Both the position numbers and the translations under genes were made by a program. Positions 1-10,171 of a DNA stretch of 11,234 bases are shown here, piece after piece. Under the pieces are notes generated by a model. That model saw nothing but the letters and a program-made list of their open reading frames with translations, did not search any database and had not been told where the DNA came from. Numbering within the stretch: the first letter of the stretch is position 1; the number at the start of each line of letters is the position of its first letter. This DNA is from Pseudomonadota bacterium (GTDB lineage: Bacteria; Myxococcota; Polyangia; GCA-2747355; JACKDQ01): NCBI GenBank assembly GCA_030591195.1, contig JAUVBO010000032.1, positions 1 through 11,234 on the forward strand, read 5' to 3'.

Positions 1-795
1 GCCAACGTCGACCAGTCGGTCGGGCCGCTGCTGCAGCGCGAGTTCTGCCAGGTCGACAAGGGCGGAGAGCTGTTCTACGCCACGATCGACGAGGGGCTCG
101 AGGCCTCGCGCTTCGCCCCGATCATCTACGAGATCTTCTACTTCTGCCTCGCGGTCGGCTTCGGCGGCAAGCACAGCGGCAACGAGGAGCAGATCGCGGC
201 CTACATGCGAAAGCTCGGCGCCAAGCTCGAGCTCTCGGCGAGCGAGGAGGTCGAGACCACCGACGTCACGGCGACCGGGTCGATCCGGCCGACGTGGTCG
301 CATTGGTGGTATTACCTGGCCGCGACGCTCTTCGTCGTCGCGATCTACGCGCTGCTCTCGGCGCTGTCGGACGAGCCGCCGGCTGACGATCTGGCGGGCT
401 CCGGTGCGGACCAGATCGCAGCGGTGGTGTTTTCACCCTGGCCCGGGACCACGCCCATGGTAGCGGTCGCTGCCCGGCCGGCTGAGGGCGAGGATGACGA
501 CGAGGCGGACGACGACGAGGCGGACGACGACGAGGCGGACGACGACGAGGCGGACGAGCCTGCGTCGGAGGAAGACGCTGAGGGGCATGCTGGCAACCGG
601 CGGGGCGATGATGCTCCGTTCGTTCGGCGCGGCTCCGCGGATCGTCGGCAAGCCGACGGTGCTGCTGGGGGACATGCCGGTGCGGACCCACGACAGCAAG
701 CTGATCTGCTCCTCGGGCGGGGAGGTCCAGCTCACCCTCCCTGGGCAGCTCACTGTCCAGACCTGACCTCGTGTGCAGGGGCGCCGAGAGGGTGA
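1..795 (+). CDS. tssL: TssL/DotU-family T6SS inner-membrane subunit, C-terminal part (5' truncated by window)
   Basis: The frame is open from base 1, so the N-terminus lies outside the window. Window residues 44-58 (EIFYFCLAVGFGGKH) match the DotU/TssL signature of an aromatic helix followed by a C-L-x-x-G-F-x-G-K/R motif. One transmembrane segment follows at about residues 102-122 (WWYYLAATLFVVAIYALLSA), the C-terminal anchor position expected for TssL. In the T6SS, TssL forms the envelope-spanning complex with TssM and TssJ; most of the protein is cytoplasmic. After the membrane segment comes a short tail with four DDDEA repeats and further acidic residues. Third-position G/C bias in this frame is lost after about base 580, although the frame stays open to TGA at 793-795. 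The last ~70 codons are therefore probably not native and overlap a better coding frame. A TGA in frame 3 at 579-581 would be a natural end if one indel were present. Family assignment is fairly secure; the C-terminal boundary is not. Confidence 0.8.
   Translation, partial: ANVDQSVGPLLQREFCQVDKGGELFYATIDEGLEASRFAPIIYEIFYFCLAVGFGGKHSGNEEQIAAYMRKLGAKLELSASEEVETTDVTATGSIRPTWSHWWYYLAATLFVVAIYALLSALSDEPPADDLAGSGADQIAAVVFSPWPGTTPMVAVAARPAEGEDDDEADDDEADDDEADDDEADEPASEEDAEGHAGNRRGDDAPFVRRGSADRRQADGAAGGHAGADPRQQADLLLGRGGPAHPPWAAHCPDLTSCAGAPRG
493..552 (+). repeat. 15-bp tandem repeat encoding DDDEA, four copies
   Basis: Four consecutive copies of the unit GACGACGACGAGGCG (the first begins GAT) encode an acidic Asp/Glu tract in the tssL tail. 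The unit is a multiple of three, so copy-number change would not shift the tssL frame. In frame 2 the same tract reads Thr/Arg-rich, which explains a spurious upstream extension of the small gene that follows. Confidence 0.9.
587..766 (+). CDS. miniature DUF4280/PAAR-like T6SS spike-tip candidate (59 aa)
   Basis: This reading frame lies inside the overrunning 3' end of the tssL frame, shifted by one base. Codons are strongly G/C-ending, unlike the overlapping tssL frame. The start is chosen at ATG 587, with GGAGGAAG at 567-574 about 12 nt upstream; a frame-2 extension back to ATG 494 only translates the acidic repeat as Thr/Arg and is rejected. Residues 6-17 (GAMMLRSFGAAP) resemble the opening of DUF4280 proteins (GA-x-x-x-C-S-F-G-x-A-P). 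Residues 21-55 (GKPTVLLGDMPV, then SKLIC, GGEVQL and PGQ) resemble its closing motif (G-x-PTV-x-x-G, SK-x-x-C, GG-x-I, PGQ). The usual middle of the domain is absent. DUF4280/PAAR-like proteins cap the VgrG spike and carry effectors, which fits the tssL neighbour. Assignment rests on recalled motifs. It could be a compact functional tip or a remnant with an internal deletion. Confidence 0.6.
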   Translation: MLATGGAMMLRSFGAAPRIVGKPTVLLGDMPVRTHDSKLICSSGGEVQLTLPGQLTVQT

Positions 796-2590: not shown

Positions 2591-3049
2591 CTATCTGCGA
2601 GCGGGCGGAGCCTCGGCGGCCTGGCGCTGCAGGTCGCGTCTCATCGCCCGCATGATCGCCTTGAGCAGCTCCTTGGCGTCCTTGTTCTTGGAGACCTTCT
2701 CGAGGCCGTCGACGAGCATCCGGTCGAGCCGCTTCTGCAGCTCGGGGTTCATCGGCGTGGCGCGTCCTGGCGCCGGCTTGGTGGTGAGCTTGAAGTTGCC
2801 CTTGCTCAGCTGACCGAGCAGGCCGGTAATGCCAGCGAGGGGATCGTTGGCGCGCCCGGCGCTCGGCTGCTGCAGCGCCGCGACTTGGCGCTCGAGCGCG
2901 GCGTTTTTATGCTGCAGCGCCTTGATCTGCTCGCGCATCGCCTGGCGCTCGGATCGGCCCGGGTCGCAGCCAGCCAGGATGATCGGCGCCGCGAGCAATA
3001 CCAGCGCCACCGAAGATGAAGAGATCGTGGGGACCGACCGGCAGGACAT
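2591..3049 (-). CDS. coiled-coil lipoprotein, unknown function (152 aa)
   Basis: The start is set at the ATG whose complement is 3047-3049, preceded on the minus strand by AAGGTGA with 5-nt spacing; this start gives a complete signal peptide. A hydrophobic stretch at residues 13-26 ends in the lipobox LAG-C (Cys28). Asp29 follows the Cys, which in the enterobacterial Lol rule favours inner-membrane retention; whether this holds here is inference. Residues 33-61 form a heptad-rich helix (REQIKALQHKN, then ALERQVAALQQ) predicted to be a coiled coil. The C-terminal third (102-147) is rich in Lys/Arg and helical, with LDRMLVDGLEKVS and AIMRAMRRDL. No enzymatic motif was recognised. It is transcribed divergently from the propeller lipoprotein gene and converges with the micro-ORF. 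A periplasmic scaffolding or adaptor role is possible but not shown. Confidence 0.75.
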   Translation of the reverse strand: MSCRSVPTISSSSVALVLLAAPIILAGCDPGRSERQAMREQIKALQHKNAALERQVAALQQPSAGRANDPLAGITGLLGQLSKGNFKLTTKPAPGRATPMNPELQKRLDRMLVDGLEKVSKNKDAKELLKAIMRAMRRDLQRQAAEAPPARR

Positions 3050-3260
3050 GGCGTCACCTTGTTTCGCTGCGACCTGGAGACCTCTCGACCTGGATACCAC
3101 GATTCGAGCCACGGGGCAGCCGGACAGCGGTCGACCGGTTGCACACGAGCGGTGGCTCGAGGGCCTGGTCGGCAGCAAAACCGGAAGGATTCCGGCCCGG
3201 CCCGGCTGGTATGACCGTTGCACTCCCGACCGTGTGTTCAATCCACGCCGAGGAGGAATG
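3050..3260. promoter_or_regulatory. divergent intergenic region between two lipoprotein genes
   Basis: This 211-bp stretch separates the minus-strand coiled-coil lipoprotein from the plus-strand propeller lipoprotein and must hold both promoters. I see no strong -35/-10 pair. AGGAGG at 3251-3256 is a near-consensus ribosome binding site. It abuts the ATG at 3258 and is spaced 4 nt from the ATG at 3261, which favours the second ATG. Open frames crossing the region in both directions lack coding character. Confidence 0.5.
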
Positions 3261-4328
3261 ATGCGCGCGACCGCAGCGAAGGTTGTCCTGGTTTGTCTCG
3301 GAGCGATGTTCGCTATCGCCTGTGGCGGTGGTCAGGCCGGGCCGTCGATCTACCAGCCCGGCTCCGCGCCGACCCAGCCCGGCGCCACGCCGACCGAGCC
3401 TGGCGCCACACCGACCGAGCCCGGCGTTACGCCGACCCAGCCCGGCGCCACGCCGACCCAGCCCGGCGCCACGCCGACCCAGCCCGCCAACCCGAACGGA
3501 ACCTGGACCCAGTCGATGTCGCCGATCACCGCCGCGCTCTACGCGCTGTGGAAGAGCGCGCCAAGCGACGTCTGGGCCGTGGGCAACCTGGGCTTGATCC
3601 TGCGCTACCAGGGTGGCGGCTGGGCGGTCAACGACCAGATTGCGGGCAGCTTCCAGGCGATCTGGGGCAGTGGGCCGAGCGACATCTGGGCCGCGGGAGG
3701 CGGCAGCTACTCCTGCACCCTGTACCACTTCGACGGGGTGGGCTGGAGCAAGGTGGACTGCCCCGAGGGCCAGAAGCAGGGCATCTTCGGGCTCTGGGGC
3801 ACCTCGGCTGACAACATCTGGGCCGTGGGTGCCAAGGGCACGATCCTGCATCGCACGTCGGGCGGCTGGAGCAAGGTTCCAAGCGGCGTCGACGTCGACC
3901 TCACCGCGATCTGGGGCGCTGGCAACCGGGTCTGGACCGTCGGCAAGGAGGGCACGATCCTCGCCTACGACGGCAGCGGCTGGACGAGCCAGGTCTCTGG
4001 CACCGAGCAGAGCCTGCGCGCGATCTGGGGCACCTCGGCGACGGACATCACGGTCGGCGGCGAGGCGATCGTGCTCGTCGGCGACGGCGCGAGCTGGCGC
4101 GAGGACAGCCAGGCGACGGGCTTCGTCAACCGCCGCGCCCGGGCCGTCGGTGGCGCCGGCACCAACGTCTGGGTCGGCTCGAGCAAGGGCACGATCATGC
4201 GCCGCACCGGCTCCAGCTGGAGCGTCGACATCGCGCCGATCGACGCGGCGATCTTCGACTTCATCGACGACGGCGGCGGTGGCCTGTGGGCCGTCGGTGA
4301 CCGGGGCACGATCCTCCGCTACCAGTAG
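3261..4328 (+). CDS. lipoprotein with seven-bladed beta-propeller (355 aa)
   Basis: The start is ATG 3261 (ATG 3258 is possible but touches the ribosome binding site). A signal peptide ends in the lipobox FAIA-C with Cys21, followed by GGG. Residues 36-75 are a Pro/Thr linker of six near-identical units of the type ATPTQPG. The rest is built from repeats of about 40 residues with the pattern IWG-x-S-x-x-D-I/V-W-A-V-G-x-x-G-T-I-L-x-x-x-G-x-x-W. Repeat strands (GLILRY, CTLYHF, GTILHR, GTILAY, AIVLVG, GTIMRR, GTILRY) occur seven times. The N-terminal TWTQS (81-85) resembles the outer strand missing from the last repeat, so ring closure by an N-terminal strand is likely. Such proteins are common surface or periplasmic lipoproteins of myxobacteria and relatives; the role is probably binding of a protein or glycan. 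No catalytic residues were recognised. It ends 10 nt from the convergent phosphoesterase gene. Confidence 0.85.
   Translation: MRATAAKVVLVCLGAMFAIACGGGQAGPSIYQPGSAPTQPGATPTEPGATPTEPGVTPTQPGATPTQPGATPTQPANPNGTWTQSMSPITAALYALWKSAPSDVWAVGNLGLILRYQGGGWAVNDQIAGSFQAIWGSGPSDIWAAGGGSYSCTLYHFDGVGWSKVDCPEGQKQGIFGLWGTSADNIWAVGAKGTILHRTSGGWSKVPSGVDVDLTAIWGAGNRVWTVGKEGTILAYDGSGWTSQVSGTEQSLRAIWGTSATDITVGGEAIVLVGDGASWREDSQATGFVNRRARAVGGAGTNVWVGSSKGTIMRRTGSSWSVDIAPIDAAIFDFIDDGGGGLWAVGDRGTILRYQ
3366..3485 (+). repeat. 21-bp tandem repeats encoding (A/V)TPT(Q/E)PG
   Basis: Six in-frame copies of a unit like GCCACGCCGACCCAGCCCGG plus one base, the first and last slightly shortened, encode a Pro/Thr-rich spacer between the lipid anchor and the propeller. 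Gln/Glu and Ala/Val substitutions between copies show limited divergence, so copy number may vary between strains. Confidence 0.9.
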
Positions 4329-5544: not shown

Positions 5545-6366
5545 CTATCGTCGACCCCGCCGGCCCGCCATCGCTTCGACTGGGGATTCGACGAAAACGC
5601 CGTCGGCCGCCGCTGGAATCACCTGACGGATGCCGAGCTGCAGCCGAATCGCTCGTACCAGGCGCGGGTCTGGCTCCATCCCTTGGAGGCGAGACAAGGT
5701 CTCGCGCGTGGTGCCGAGCAGGTTGGCGATGCCAGCCACGGAGAGGTGGCCCTGCAACAGCGCCATCACGGCTCTCCAGGCCGCGCGCGTCGTGGCGCTT
5801 CGCGGGACGAGTCTGTTCAGGCCGAGGGCCGCGAGGGTCGCTGGAACCACCTGCACCAGCGGCCCGGTGGATTCCGGGAGGCTGTCGACGCCGAGCAGTC
5901 CGAGGAGCTGGGCCCGATGAACGCGGGGAAGCTGGCTACGCACGTGGGCCGCGGTGTGCTGGCCGATCAACCTCATGCCGAGCAGATCGGGCAGGTTGCT
6001 CGCGTCGTGGTAGGGATCCCAGAGCAGCTCGTGGTGGGGCTGCTGGCGCAGGATGTAGTCGAAGGTCTTCAGCAGATGGCCCTGATGTCGAATCGCCTTG
6101 TGGGTGGCTTGAGCGAAGCCGACGGGGAGGCCGAGGCGTCGTCGAATCGAGATCTGCACCCGCCGGACCAGCTTTCCGCTGGTGGCACGGTTCTCGAGGT
6201 GCTCCAGGTGCAGGTGGGTGTCCGGGGCGTTGAACGCCAGCAGGCGGTGTCCCCGGCTCATCTCCAGGACGATCCGGGCGATCTGGCGCCGTTGCTCGCG
6301 GGTCGGGGCGATCACGCGGCTGTCCGTCAGCCGGCAAATGACATGGTATCCGATCGGCTCGTTCAT
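5545..6366 (-). CDS. Y1 (HUH) REP-associated tyrosine transposase-like protein with C-terminal HTH extension
   Basis: Residues 6-110 have the Y1_Tnp layout: strand GYHVICRLTD, a helix, then APDTHLHLE with the HUH metal motif His51-x-His53, a following helix, and FDYILRQ with candidate nucleophile Tyr104. RAYT proteins of this class bind and cleave REP hairpins in single-stranded DNA. Typical RAYTs are about 150-200 residues; this one is 273. The extra part ends with AVMALLQGHL, SVAGIANLLG and TTRETLSRL (199-227), which looks like a helix-turn-helix and could add sequence-specific duplex binding. All catalytic residues look intact and no frameshift is seen. The start has no clear ribosome binding site; GATAAC just upstream on the minus strand could be a -10 for near-leaderless transcription. 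The array of related repeats upstream (6451-6620) fits a RAYT/REP pairing. A domesticated DNA-binding protein is the main alternative. Confidence 0.75.
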   Translation of the reverse strand: MNEPIGYHVICRLTDSRVIAPTREQRRQIARIVLEMSRGHRLLAFNAPDTHLHLEHLENRATSGKLVRRVQISIRRRLGLPVGFAQATHKAIRHQGHLLKTFDYILRQQPHHELLWDPYHDASNLPDLLGMRLIGQHTAAHVRSQLPRVHRAQLLGLLGVDSLPESTGPLVQVVPATLAALGLNRLVPRSATTRAAWRAVMALLQGHLSVAGIANLLGTTRETLSRLQGMEPDPRLVRAIRLQLGIRQVIPAAADGVFVESPVEAMAGRRGRR

Positions 6367-6726
6367 CGGCCGTGTTATCGGCTCGGTTGCGGTGATGTTG
6401 CGAAAAGGATGACTCAGGAGGACGATTCACGCGCGATTTCTTCGGAGGGCGTGACGCTCGAGGCGAAGTTCCAAAAACTCGAGGCTGTGCGTCACGGCAG
6501 ATGTGGCGCTCGAGGCGAGGATTCGGGCGCTCGAGGCGAGGATCCTGGAACTCGAGGCTGAGCATCACGGCAGGCGTGACGCTCGAGGCAAAGTTCTCAA
6601 AACTCGAGGCTGCGCGTCACGGTCGACGGCGGTCGCGGTGATGATCGTGAAACGGTCCAGCGGGGCTCTGCAGTGTGGCTGCTTCCGAAGTTGATCACGG
6701 CCACGCAGGCGGGCGAGGGTTGCCGG
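6367..6726. other. 360-bp gene-free region holding a repeat array
   Basis: Between the divergent transposase-like gene and the TerB-like gene, no open frame has convincing coding character throughout. Bases 6367-6450 flank the transposase start and presumably contain its promoter. Bases 6451-6620 are the repeat array described separately. Bases 6621-6714 show nothing recognisable. GAGGG at 6715-6719 is the ribosome binding site for the next gene. Confidence 0.6.
6451..6620 (+). repeat. three-unit REP-like repeat array with helically phased CTCGAG sites
   Basis: Unit 1 (6451-6495) and unit 3 (6576-6620) are both 45 bp and match at 41 positions. Unit 2 (6503-6568) is the same plus a 21-bp internal duplication (6506-6526 repeated from 6527). 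The spacers between units are 7 bp and nearly identical (GGCAGAT, GGCAGGC). Units 1 and 3 begin GTGACGC and end GCGTCAC, a perfect 7-bp inverted terminus. CTCGAG occurs at 6457, 6478, 6509, 6530, 6551, 6582 and 6603, with spacings 21, 31, 21, 21, 31, 21. Each unit can fold: GTGACG pairs with CGTCAC, and the two CTCGAG sites pair with each other, leaving a 6-nt bulge. Position beside a Y1 transposase gene suggests REP elements. An operator array or decayed coding repeat are alternatives. Confidence 0.8.
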
Positions 6727-7246: not shown

Positions 7247-7312
7247 GCGCGGTGCCGGCGCTCGAAAGCAGACTGAGCGATGTTGGCACGTCTCCTGCTG
7301 TATTCGAGAGCG

Positions 7313-10171
7313 ATGCGACGCCGGACCCCACTGTTCCGTTTCCATCTGTTGCTGCTGCTGGCCGTCGGCTGCGGCGGTGGCCCGCCAGGCGGTGATGCGG
7401 GGACCGGCGGCTCGGCCTTCGAGGACCACACCGAGGCCCGGCTGGCGAGCGTCGCGACTTTCCAGGCGCTGGCCCAGCAGTCGGGGCGGCTGGCCACGGT
7501 GAAGTTCACCATCACCGCCTTCGGCGACGACGAGCAGCGGGGGATCGTTTTTTATGATGGTCGCTTCTACCGGCTGCACGACGAGTGGTACTGGTTCCGG
7601 TTGCTCGGCGGTCAGCCGATGCCCGGCGACGACGGGGTGGATCCTCACCAGGGCCTCGAGCTGTCGACCCTGCGCGAGATCTACGCCTGGGCCGTGGTCC
7701 AGTCCGTCTTGCCCCTCGACCTCGAGTTTTCCGACAAGCGGCTCTACTCGCGGCGGTTCTACCGTGAGGCGCTCGAGGTCTTCCCCAAGCGCTACGGTCT
7801 CGGCTCGCTGATCGAGATCGACGCTGACCAGGACCACCCGCAAGCACGGTGGGCGTTTCAGCTCGAGTACAGCGACCGCATCTCCCACGCCGAGCTCGTG
7901 ACCTTCTTCGAGACCCTCGTCGCGGCCGTGCCCGAGCAGATCGGCAGCGACCTGCTCTGGCTGGTGCGCTCGCCCAAGCAGGAGGTGTTGGCCCAGCAGA
8001 TGGCCCAGCAGCAGCTGCCCTACGGCGACCGGATCCTGCGTTACTCAGACCTCAGCAGGCCCGGCGAGGTGGAGGTCTACAACCCCGGGCTGACCGCGGG
8101 GCGGGTGTTGATCGTCAACGACGGGGCAGATCTCGCGCGCGCCAACGACGAGTCGATCCTCGTGCTGCCCGACATCCCCGACGAGCTGCCGGCGGCCACC
8201 GCGGTGATCTCGGCTGTGCCCCAGACGCCCCTGGCTCACATCAACCTGCTGGCCCAGAACCGCGGCATCCCCAACCTCTACCTCGGCGACGCGCTGGTGC
8301 ACCCTGAGCTGCAGAAGCTCGACGCCTCCTACAGCTGGGCGATCGTTCGCGCCGAGGCGCCCGACCGGATGACCCTGGCGCCGATCAGCGGCGCCGAGTA
8401 CGCCCGCTACAAGCAGCTGAGCACCACCACCCCGGTGAAGCTCCCGCCGCTGGATCTGCAGAGCGTGCCCTACACGATCGCCATCACCGAGCTCCCCGTG
8501 TCGGCGATGGCGGCCCAGCGCCCGCTGATCGGCGGCAAGGCAACGGGCTTCGTCGCGCTGCTCGCCACCCCGTCGGTCGACACCCCCGACCTGCCGTTGG
8601 CGTTGACCGTGCGGCCGTACCTCGAGCACCTCGCCGAGCTCAGGCCGCTGATCGAGATAATGCTCGTCGAGGATATCTTTGGCACCGACGCGCGGATCCG
8701 CTTTCTGCTGCTCGAAGGTCGCGCCGCCTTCGACCAGACCCACCTCGAGCCGTCGGACCAGGCGGCGGCCGATTCCTTCGTCACCGCCCGGCCGGTCGGC
8801 GATCCGCTCGGCGACCTGGTGCGCGACGGCGGGCTGAAGCGGGTGATCCGCGACAAGCCGATCGCGGCCTCGACCCTGGCCCAGCTGACCGCCGCGTTGA
8901 AGGAGCGCTTCGCTTCGCTGTCGCCCGAGCAGGGGCTGCGCTTTCGCTCCTCGAGCACGGTGGAGGACGTCGAGGGGTTCAACGGCGCCGGGCTCTACGA
9001 CTCGAACACTGGCTTCGTCGACCCGACAGGCCGGCCCGACAAGGGCGAGCGGAAGAAGACCTTCGCCTGGGCGATCAAGAAGACCTGGGCCTCCTACTGG
9101 GCCTTCGCCGCCTTCGAGGAGCGGCGTCGCGAGCGGATCGACCACCTCAGCGGGGCGATGGCGCTGCTGGTCCACCCGCGCTTCGCCGACTCGCTCGAGC
9201 TGGCCAACGGCGTCTTCACCCTGACGGTGATGCCACCGGGCAGCGAGCTCGAGGCGGTGATGGAGCTCAACGTGCAACAGGGGGCGCTGAGCGTGACCAA
9301 CCCGCCGGGCGCGACCCACCTGCCCGAGGTCGTCCGGGTGACCCTCGCCGCTGGCGCGGGCTCGCCCGGGGTGACGCGGGTTCGCAGCTCGACGGTGGCC
9401 CAGCCCGGCGAAGAGGTGCTGTCGGACGAGCAGCTGGTCGAGATCTTTGGCCAGGCTCGCGCGGTCACCGACGCCTGGCTGGCCCAGGCCAACCTTGGCG
9501 TGGCCAAGGTTCAGCAGGCGCGCAGCCTGACGCTGGACTTCGAGTTTCGTTGGATGGAGGCCGGCTGGCCGGCGCGCGTCAGCGGCCCGGCTACCAGCCG
9601 GCGGATGGTGCTAAAGCAGGCGCGCCCGCTCGAGCCGGGGCTACGCCACGGCTTCGCCGCCAAGGTGCGGCAGCTGCCGGTGCCCCGCGACCTGCTGTCG
9701 CGCTCGCGCCGGGTGGAGCGCCGCAGCTGCTCGGCCGACGGGCTGCGCTTCAGCTTGACCGAGGTGCTGACCGATCCGGCGGCCAAGCCAGACCTCGGCC
9801 ACGCCGAGGTGCCCTTCGTCGCCTGGATCCGGATCGAGGTCACCGCCGACCAGACCGAGCTCGGCTGGCAGCAGGGCGAGCTGTTCGACCTCTATCATCC
9901 ACACTTCACCGCCGTCAGCCACGGCGGCCCGGCCTGTGTGCCAGGGAGCTACTGCGAGGTCGGGGTGACCATCGCCGCCGAGGGTCAGCCCATGGCGCCC
10001 ACCGGCTTCGGGCTGGCCACTGACGGTAGCTATCGCATCGAGCGCGACGGCCAGGTCGTCTCGGGCGCCCTGGCGGGTTGCTCCACCGAGGTGCTGCGCA
10101 GCAGCCCCACCGACTACCTGCTGAGCTTGCTGGCGAACCGGCAGGCGAGCGAGGACGAGGGGAAGAAATGA
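7313..10171 (+). CDS. lipoprotein with phosphohistidine and PEP-synthase/PPDK-like ATP-grasp domains (952 aa)
   Basis: Starting at ATG 7313 gives a signal peptide with lipobox LAVG-C (Cys20) and a GGGPPGG linker; ATG 7280 is an alternative adding 11 residues, and neither has a strong ribosome binding site. Residues 36-255 form an unrecognised N-terminal domain. Residues 256-330 resemble the swivelling PEP-utiliser domain, with TPLAHINLLAQNRGIPN placing His309 as the phosphocarrier. From about 400 the PPDK/PEP-synthase ATP-grasp fold follows: IGGKATGFVALL (Lys409), LRFRSSSTVEDVEG (Arg545 and Glu551-Asp552), LDFEF (742-744) and LKQARPLEP (Gln769, Arg771). The His domain precedes the ATP-grasp domain, the order found in glucan water dikinases rather than PEP synthase. 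Residues 805-952 are a C-terminal extension with an H-F-T-A-V-S-H segment and three Cys. Such enzymes transfer the beta-phosphate of ATP via His to an acceptor. The substrate here is unknown. An export signal on an ATP-using enzyme is odd. The gene overlaps the next by ATGA. Confidence 0.8.
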   Translation: MRRRTPLFRFHLLLLLAVGCGGGPPGGDAGTGGSAFEDHTEARLASVATFQALAQQSGRLATVKFTITAFGDDEQRGIVFYDGRFYRLHDEWYWFRLLGGQPMPGDDGVDPHQGLELSTLREIYAWAVVQSVLPLDLEFSDKRLYSRRFYREALEVFPKRYGLGSLIEIDADQDHPQARWAFQLEYSDRISHAELVTFFETLVAAVPEQIGSDLLWLVRSPKQEVLAQQMAQQQLPYGDRILRYSDLSRPGEVEVYNPGLTAGRVLIVNDGADLARANDESILVLPDIPDELPAATAVISAVPQTPLAHINLLAQNRGIPNLYLGDALVHPELQKLDASYSWAIVRAEAPDRMTLAPISGAEYARYKQLSTTTPVKLPPLDLQSVPYTIAITELPVSAMAAQRPLIGGKATGFVALLATPSVDTPDLPLALTVRPYLEHLAELRPLIEIMLVEDIFGTDARIRFLLLEGRAAFDQTHLEPSDQAAADSFVTARPVGDPLGDLVRDGGLKRVIRDKPIAASTLAQLTAALKERFASLSPEQGLRFRSSSTVEDVEGFNGAGLYDSNTGFVDPTGRPDKGERKKTFAWAIKKTWASYWAFAAFEERRRERIDHLSGAMALLVHPRFADSLELANGVFTLTVMPPGSELEAVMELNVQQGALSVTNPPGATHLPEVVRVTLAAGAGSPGVTRVRSSTVAQPGEEVLSDEQLVEIFGQARAVTDAWLAQANLGVAKVQQARSLTLDFEFRWMEAGWPARVSGPATSRRMVLKQARPLEPGLRHGFAAKVRQLPVPRDLLSRSRRVERRSCSADGLRFSLTEVLTDPAAKPDLGHAEVPFVAWIRIEVTADQTELGWQQGELFDLYHPHFTAVSHGGPACVPGSYCEVGVTIAAEGQPMAPTGFGLATDGSYRIERDGQVVSGALAGCSTEVLRSSPTDYLLSLLANRQASEDEGKK

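What the first reader, a model, noticed from the sequence alone, without database searches (positions are those of the whole stretch)
6451..6620. Repeat array whose seven CTCGAG sites are spaced only by 21 or 31 bp, next to a Y1 transposase gene
Seen: seven CTCGAG palindromes at 6457, 6478, 6509, 6530, 6551, 6582, 6603, with intervals 21, 31, 21, 21, 31, 21. These are close to two and three turns of B-DNA, so all sites lie on about one face. Units have matched 7-bp inverted ends and constant 7-bp spacers. Inference: either REP elements mobilised by the adjacent RAYT-like protein, or a cooperative operator bound by its HTH domain. REPs normally form one compact hairpin with a conserved foot tetranucleotide; this array does not look like that.
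Basis: partly seen in the sequence, partly recalled or inferred. Interest (0 to 1): 0.75.

Follow-up and report, generated by a model that had tools for sequence, protein, structure and literature searches.

The report
Helically spaced repeats beside transposase-like gene
The repeats are a small cluster of inverted-repeat DNA units next to a divergent transposase-like gene; many related genes carry such clusters, copies of the units lie elsewhere in the genomes that could be tested, and the distance from unit to unit tends to keep to whole turns of the DNA helix.

The parts
6451..6495 (.). Unit A, 45-bp inverted repeat (GTGACGC...GCGTCAC), CTCGAG at 6457 and 6478
   Evidence: sequence; direct-repeat families; fold z -3.2 on +, -2.8 on -
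6496..6502 (.). 7-bp spacer GGCAGAT
   Evidence: sequence
6503..6568 (.). Middle unit, 66 bp, diverged ends (GTGGCGC / GCATCAC) and one extra 21-bp CTCGAG stretch
   Evidence: sequence; no fold beyond shuffles; start 52 bp after that of unit A
6569..6575 (.). 7-bp spacer GGCAGGC
   Evidence: sequence
6576..6620 (.). Unit C, 45-bp inverted repeat, near copy of unit A
   Evidence: 91% identity to unit A over 35 nt; fold z -3.2 on +, -2.7 on -; start 73 bp after that of the middle unit
5545..6366 (-). 273-aa divergent Y1/HUH-type protein with a likely C-terminal HTH; 84 bp lie between its start codon and the array
6208..6222 (-). HUH motif DTHLH (residues 49-53)
   Evidence: alignment A1
6055..6057 (-). 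putative catalytic Tyr104
   Evidence: invariant in 41 of 41; opposite the Tyr of the RAYT-like motif in the profile alignment

Best explanation
The array is the cognate repeat cluster of a divergent Y1/HUH protein with an HTH domain: a REPtron-like system. Shown: the protein family with conserved HxH and Tyr, its predicted RAYT/IS200-like fold, repeat units beside many of its genes, copies of the units away from any detected family gene in four relatives, and unit pitches near whole helical turns. Inferred: the HTH domains recognise the unit arms in duplex DNA, neighbouring protomers assemble on one face of the helix, and the HUH/Tyr domain cuts and joins units in single-stranded or extruded hairpin form, so that arrays, often of three units, spread. 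In the window the CTCGAG hexamers can pair as the inner stem of each outer unit; the extra 21 bp of the middle unit would add two turns.
Against: No binding, cleavage or movement was observed. The one empty-site test gave only short stretches in 8 of 38 other genomes, none spanning the locus. Several sites away from the gene share flanks (77-98 bp left and 313-403 bp right in one group, 106 and 254 bp in another), so the mobile unit is not settled. 43 of 65 discovery genes show no upstream array by the tightened detector. In G004 the 10-bp pitch steps seem to come from 10-bp repeats within the spacer (by eye). Pitch values are not independent: 51 bp recurs in the second subfamily, 102, 124 and 146 are doubles, and the genomes are related. 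A1 against the RAYT-like set directly is weak (probability 20%, E 0.001) and against E. coli RayT alone not significant; no Foldseek match reaches E 0.001.
Confidence: 0.7

Rival explanations
1. Cooperative operator: the protein's HTH represses its own promoter through the phased units; the array is regulatory and not mobile.
For: Array 84 bp upstream of the start codon, HTH hits in the family, helical phasing.
Against: Arrays without a detected family gene at 12 of 14 sites in G001 and in three further genomes; arrays also lie downstream of genes (4 of 25; 11 of 49).
Confidence: 0.12
2. The arrays are passengers spread by another element or by larger duplications, and the link to the gene is incidental.
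For: Two groups of sites share flanks beyond the array (L093/L095/L097; L088/L094).
Against: Arrays sit beside the gene in many genomes with unrelated unit sequences, and most genes within one genome have their own unit type.
Confidence: 0.1
3. Remnant of a coding heptad repeat (LEAxxxx, 21 bp = 7 codons).
For: 21-bp period; CTC GAG GCG reads Leu-Glu-Ala in a + strand ORF.
Against: Pitches of 52 and 73 bp shift the frame; relatives' units have unrelated sequences.
Confidence: 0.02
4. Structured RNA or transcript-end element rather than DNA sites.
For: 42 of 53 units fold with z below -2 on the gene strand, though chosen for inverted arms; in L087, L090 and L091 the array begins 32-34 bases after the stop codon of a long ORF not shown to be a gene.
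Against: No Rfam match in the window; both strands fold about equally (median z -3.5 and -3.5); helical-turn spacing has no evident reason in RNA.
Confidence: 0.06

Closest known systems
REPtron: TnpA-REP (RAYT) with REP/BIME repeats
   Same: Y1/HUH fold, repeats beside the gene, copies elsewhere in the genome, imperfect palindromes, a repeat family of its own for each gene type (for REPtrons: Quentin 2018, PMC6006769, section 12 read)
   Different: Units mostly 42-55 bp with no GT[AG]G foot; same-strand triplets in G001 (units are near-palindromes and L099 is ambiguous) whereas 29 of 30 neighbouring REP pairs in 300 kb of E. coli alternate; window protein without PF01797 match up to E 10; pitch near whole helical turns
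TnpA-Y1 subclass 2.1 / TIRYT (TIRtrons)
   Same: C-terminal HTH_23/HTH_28-type domain (PMC6006769, section 20 read); some TIR repeats are self-complementary and occur in dimers or clusters (PMC3733652, passages)
   Different: Quentin 2018 report no REP-like sequences beside subclass 2.1 genes; many TIRs there share GGGGWSAS, which is not enriched here (9 of 65 upstream regions, 8 of 65 shuffled); long TIRs on both sides were not tested for
IS200/IS605 TnpA (IS608, ISDra2)
   Same: HUH plus Tyr, similar fold
   Different: Extra C-terminal HTH and multi-unit arrays; no TnpB-like Pfam hit among the seven window proteins scanned; IS ends were not looked for

Membership tests
REPtron (RAYT/TnpA-REP) | HUH motif and catalytic Tyr | tested here: met
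   D49 x H51 x H53 and Y104 invariant in 41 of 41; catalysis itself not tested
REPtron (RAYT/TnpA-REP) | Y1 transposase fold | tested here: met
REPtron (RAYT/TnpA-REP) | PF01797 match | tested here: not met
   window protein none up to E 10; not among the 25 of 41 families shown for the 41 members; two second-subfamily genes pass the cut-off
REPtron (RAYT/TnpA-REP) | Repeats beside the gene | tested here: met
   window; family
REPtron (RAYT/TnpA-REP) | Repeat family dispersed in the host genome | tested here: inconclusive
   seen in 4 of 4 relatives tested; some sites in G004 lie at contig ends; window's own genome not held
REPtron (RAYT/TnpA-REP) | GT[AG]G foot at the hairpin | tested here: not met
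   4 of 55 units, 4.6 expected
REPtron (RAYT/TnpA-REP) | Cleavage of single-stranded cognate repeat | not testable with these tools
   needs purified protein
TIRYT / subclass 2.1 | C-terminal HTH | tested here: met
   HTH_23 in 22 of 41 members at E up to 0.1; the window protein's own hits are below cut-off
TIRYT / subclass 2.1 | GGGGWSAS motif of many TIRs | tested here: not met
   9 of 65 upstream regions against 8 of 65 after shuffling
TIRYT / subclass 2.1 | Long terminal inverted repeats on both sides of the gene | not tested
   only repeated IR units were looked for

The most novel reading that the evidence does not exclude
A Y1/HUH transposase lineage that recognises its repeat arrays as phased duplex DNA: HTH-Y1 protomers bind neighbouring units on one face of the helix, selection or targeting keeps unit pitch to whole helical turns, and the multi-unit array is what moves. 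That would be a mode of REP-type recognition different from the single-stranded hairpin plus foot used by the RAYTs studied so far.
Probability: 0.45. Interest if true: 0.78.

Novelty: new variant of a known kind. Interest (0 to 1): 0.62.

Why it matters
REP elements are thought to be processed by their transposases as single-stranded hairpins (Corneloup 2021, PMC8266576, abstract seen). Arrays whose spacing follows the duplex helix over many unrelated unit sequences would show that a duplex stage matters, and this has a simple test: 5-bp against 10-bp spacer changes. It also adds a family of Y1 proteins that Pfam mostly does not flag; at E up to 1e-20 it was found in 23 of 282 genomes sampled from the phylum of one relative (at most 9 candidates scored per genome).

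Tried and rejected
CTCGAG as the conserved element: rejected (0 or 1 in 27 of 28 upstream stretches of up to 500 bases, 3 in one). Literal 21/31 spacing: not seen in relatives. Coding heptads: rejected by frame. Rfam: no match. PADLOC: no match for the four proteins given. Empty-site search with one site away from the gene: 9 of 39 genomes matched, the source included; the other eight only over short stretches, so nothing was learned. First genome scan with the single protein found nothing. Same arm downstream in the discovery set: seen in plausible form only at the G003 C368 tandem pair among the 27 families (downstream stretches there were 4-400 bases), but in the new genomes 5 of 52 genes have similar units on both sides, and one search shows units downstream of G012 C86. 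Arm motif GNC[AG][CT]AAC: 6.7 bits against at most 5.76 in 30 shuffles, but the 30 arms were picked by hand and the real set had 60 starts against 15, so a lead only. E. coli REPs as a phasing comparison: one kind of facing pair (76, 83, 99 bases, n 14) shows no common phase (R 0.36, p 0.17), the other (15-37 bases, n 15) does cluster (R 0.77, p 1.5e-4; five distinct values p 0.11), so regular spacing in classical BIMEs is not excluded. Literature: the listings of searches (open PMC papers; only the top rows of long lists were seen; the term Myxococc as a whole word could not match) showed no report of this family or of helical phasing of REP-type arrays. The RAYT groups of Bertels and colleagues are recalled, not seen.

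In one search I had in fact tightened the detector (unit length 38-62, length difference 6, complexity filter, 700 bases on both sides) before seeing the new data. Run later with the detector on 600 bases, the replicate gives R 0.81 (n 25). Collapsing equal pitches within a genome was decided, where the uncollapsed values gave R 0.84 (n 33).

Full report
Observation. They belong to three units at 6451-6495, 6503-6568 and 6576-6620 with 7-bp spacers; start-to-start pitch is 52 and 73 bp. The outer units are near copies; the middle one has diverged ends and one extra 21-bp stretch. In the minus-strand fold of the outer units an 8-bp outer stem is followed by a 6-nt bulge and a 5-bp inner stem made of the two CTCGAG copies, so the 21/31 intervals follow from the unit plan.

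Relatives. A genome scan with A1 gave 28 loci, 24 of them titled Deltaproteobacteria, Myxococcota/Myxococcales or Polyangiaceae. Upstream of many of these genes lie two to five copies, in one case eleven, of an inverted-repeat unit, mostly 42-55 bp, whose sequence differs from gene to gene. Two or more IR units sharing arms: 27 of 65 upstream regions against 2 of 325 dinucleotide shuffles (the G009 C341 and G010 C107 hits look like low complexity). Positional control in the 28 loci: 10 of 25 just upstream (one of them, L014, low complexity), 4 of 25 just downstream, 7 of 271 in the other bins (Fisher 4e-8). Tightened detector: discovery 22 of 65 upstream and 6 of 32 downstream; new genomes 16 of 52 and 11 of 49. 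Triplets recur, and in several the middle unit is diverged or missed by the detector, as in the window.

Dispersal. In G001 the L001 unit has 34 matches below E 1e-3 (36 below 10) at 14 sites; family genes of that genome adjoin two. Thirteen of the 14 sites hold exactly three units on one strand at 62-bp pitch, one holds one (units are near-palindromes and the strand of L099 is ambiguous). Units of G004, G009 and G012 are dispersed too; over the 24 stretches inspected three units is the commonest number (10 of 24 by my reading, leaving out evident spurious hits), with one to four seen; several G004 sites lie at contig ends. Some sites share flanks: L093/L095/L097 77-98 bp left and 313-403 bp right, L088/L094 106 and 254 bp. 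The window's genome is not held, so the test could not be made there.

Spacing. The pitches suggested whole helical turns. The period (10.5 bp) and the new genomes were noted before fetching (fetches 71-73, all 52 new-genome rows). The detector was tightened between note and test, so both versions are given. Detector: discovery n 25, R 0.64, p 4e-5; replicate n 25, R 0.81, p 9e-8. Tightened: discovery n 25, R 0.69, p 7e-6; replicate n 24, R 0.80, p 2e-7; together n 49, R 0.73, p 4e-12, best period between 7 and 14 10.45. Distinct values are 50-53, 62-65, 73, 74, 83, 93, 94, 102, 116, 124, 126, 127, 136, 137, 145-148, 157, 166, 168, 175 and 177 (29; p 1e-7); without doubles 20 values, p 7e-6; as 13 clusters p 1e-4. 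Exact direct repeats elsewhere in L001-L028 show nothing (n 51, R 0.16, p 0.27). Caveats: shared ancestry, and in G004 (pitches 72, 73, 83, 93, 103) the steps seem to come from 10-bp repeats in the spacer (by eye). The window's 52 and 73 fit.

Reading. HTH and helical spacing point to recognition of duplex DNA; the HUH/Tyr core and hairpin potential (42 of 53 units with z below -2, chosen for inverted arms) point to single-strand chemistry. Both steps are inferred.

Literature seen: Quentin 2018 PMC6006769 (outline and abstract, sections 6, 12, 20, passages), Di Nocera 2013 PMC3733652 (passages), Nunvar 2010 PMC2817692 (one passage), Corneloup 2021 PMC8266576 (outline and abstract). Host: the first named homologues of the neighbouring phosphoesterase are Deltaproteobacteria and Myxococcota.

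Noticed in passing
L093, L095, L097 (G001): Three arrays away from the gene sit in a larger repeated stretch, with 77-98 bp left and 313-403 bp right flank in common.
   Followed up: partly
L180, L182 (G004): Spacers between units look built of 10-bp repeats; pitches are 93 and 103 bp there, 72-83 bp at other G004 sites.
   Followed up: partly
L004:4201-4706 and L010:4526-4610: Other short tandem arrays (22-, 20- and 17-bp periods) lie near family genes in G001.
   Followed up: no
window 205-795 and 2829-4328: ORFs with acidic DDEADDDEA repeats and PTEPGATPTQPGA repeats; not shown to be genes.
   Followed up: no
window 7280-10171: 963-aa ORF with a partial PPDK_N match (E 8.6e-6, 25.7 bits, below the cut-off of 27).
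   Followed up: no
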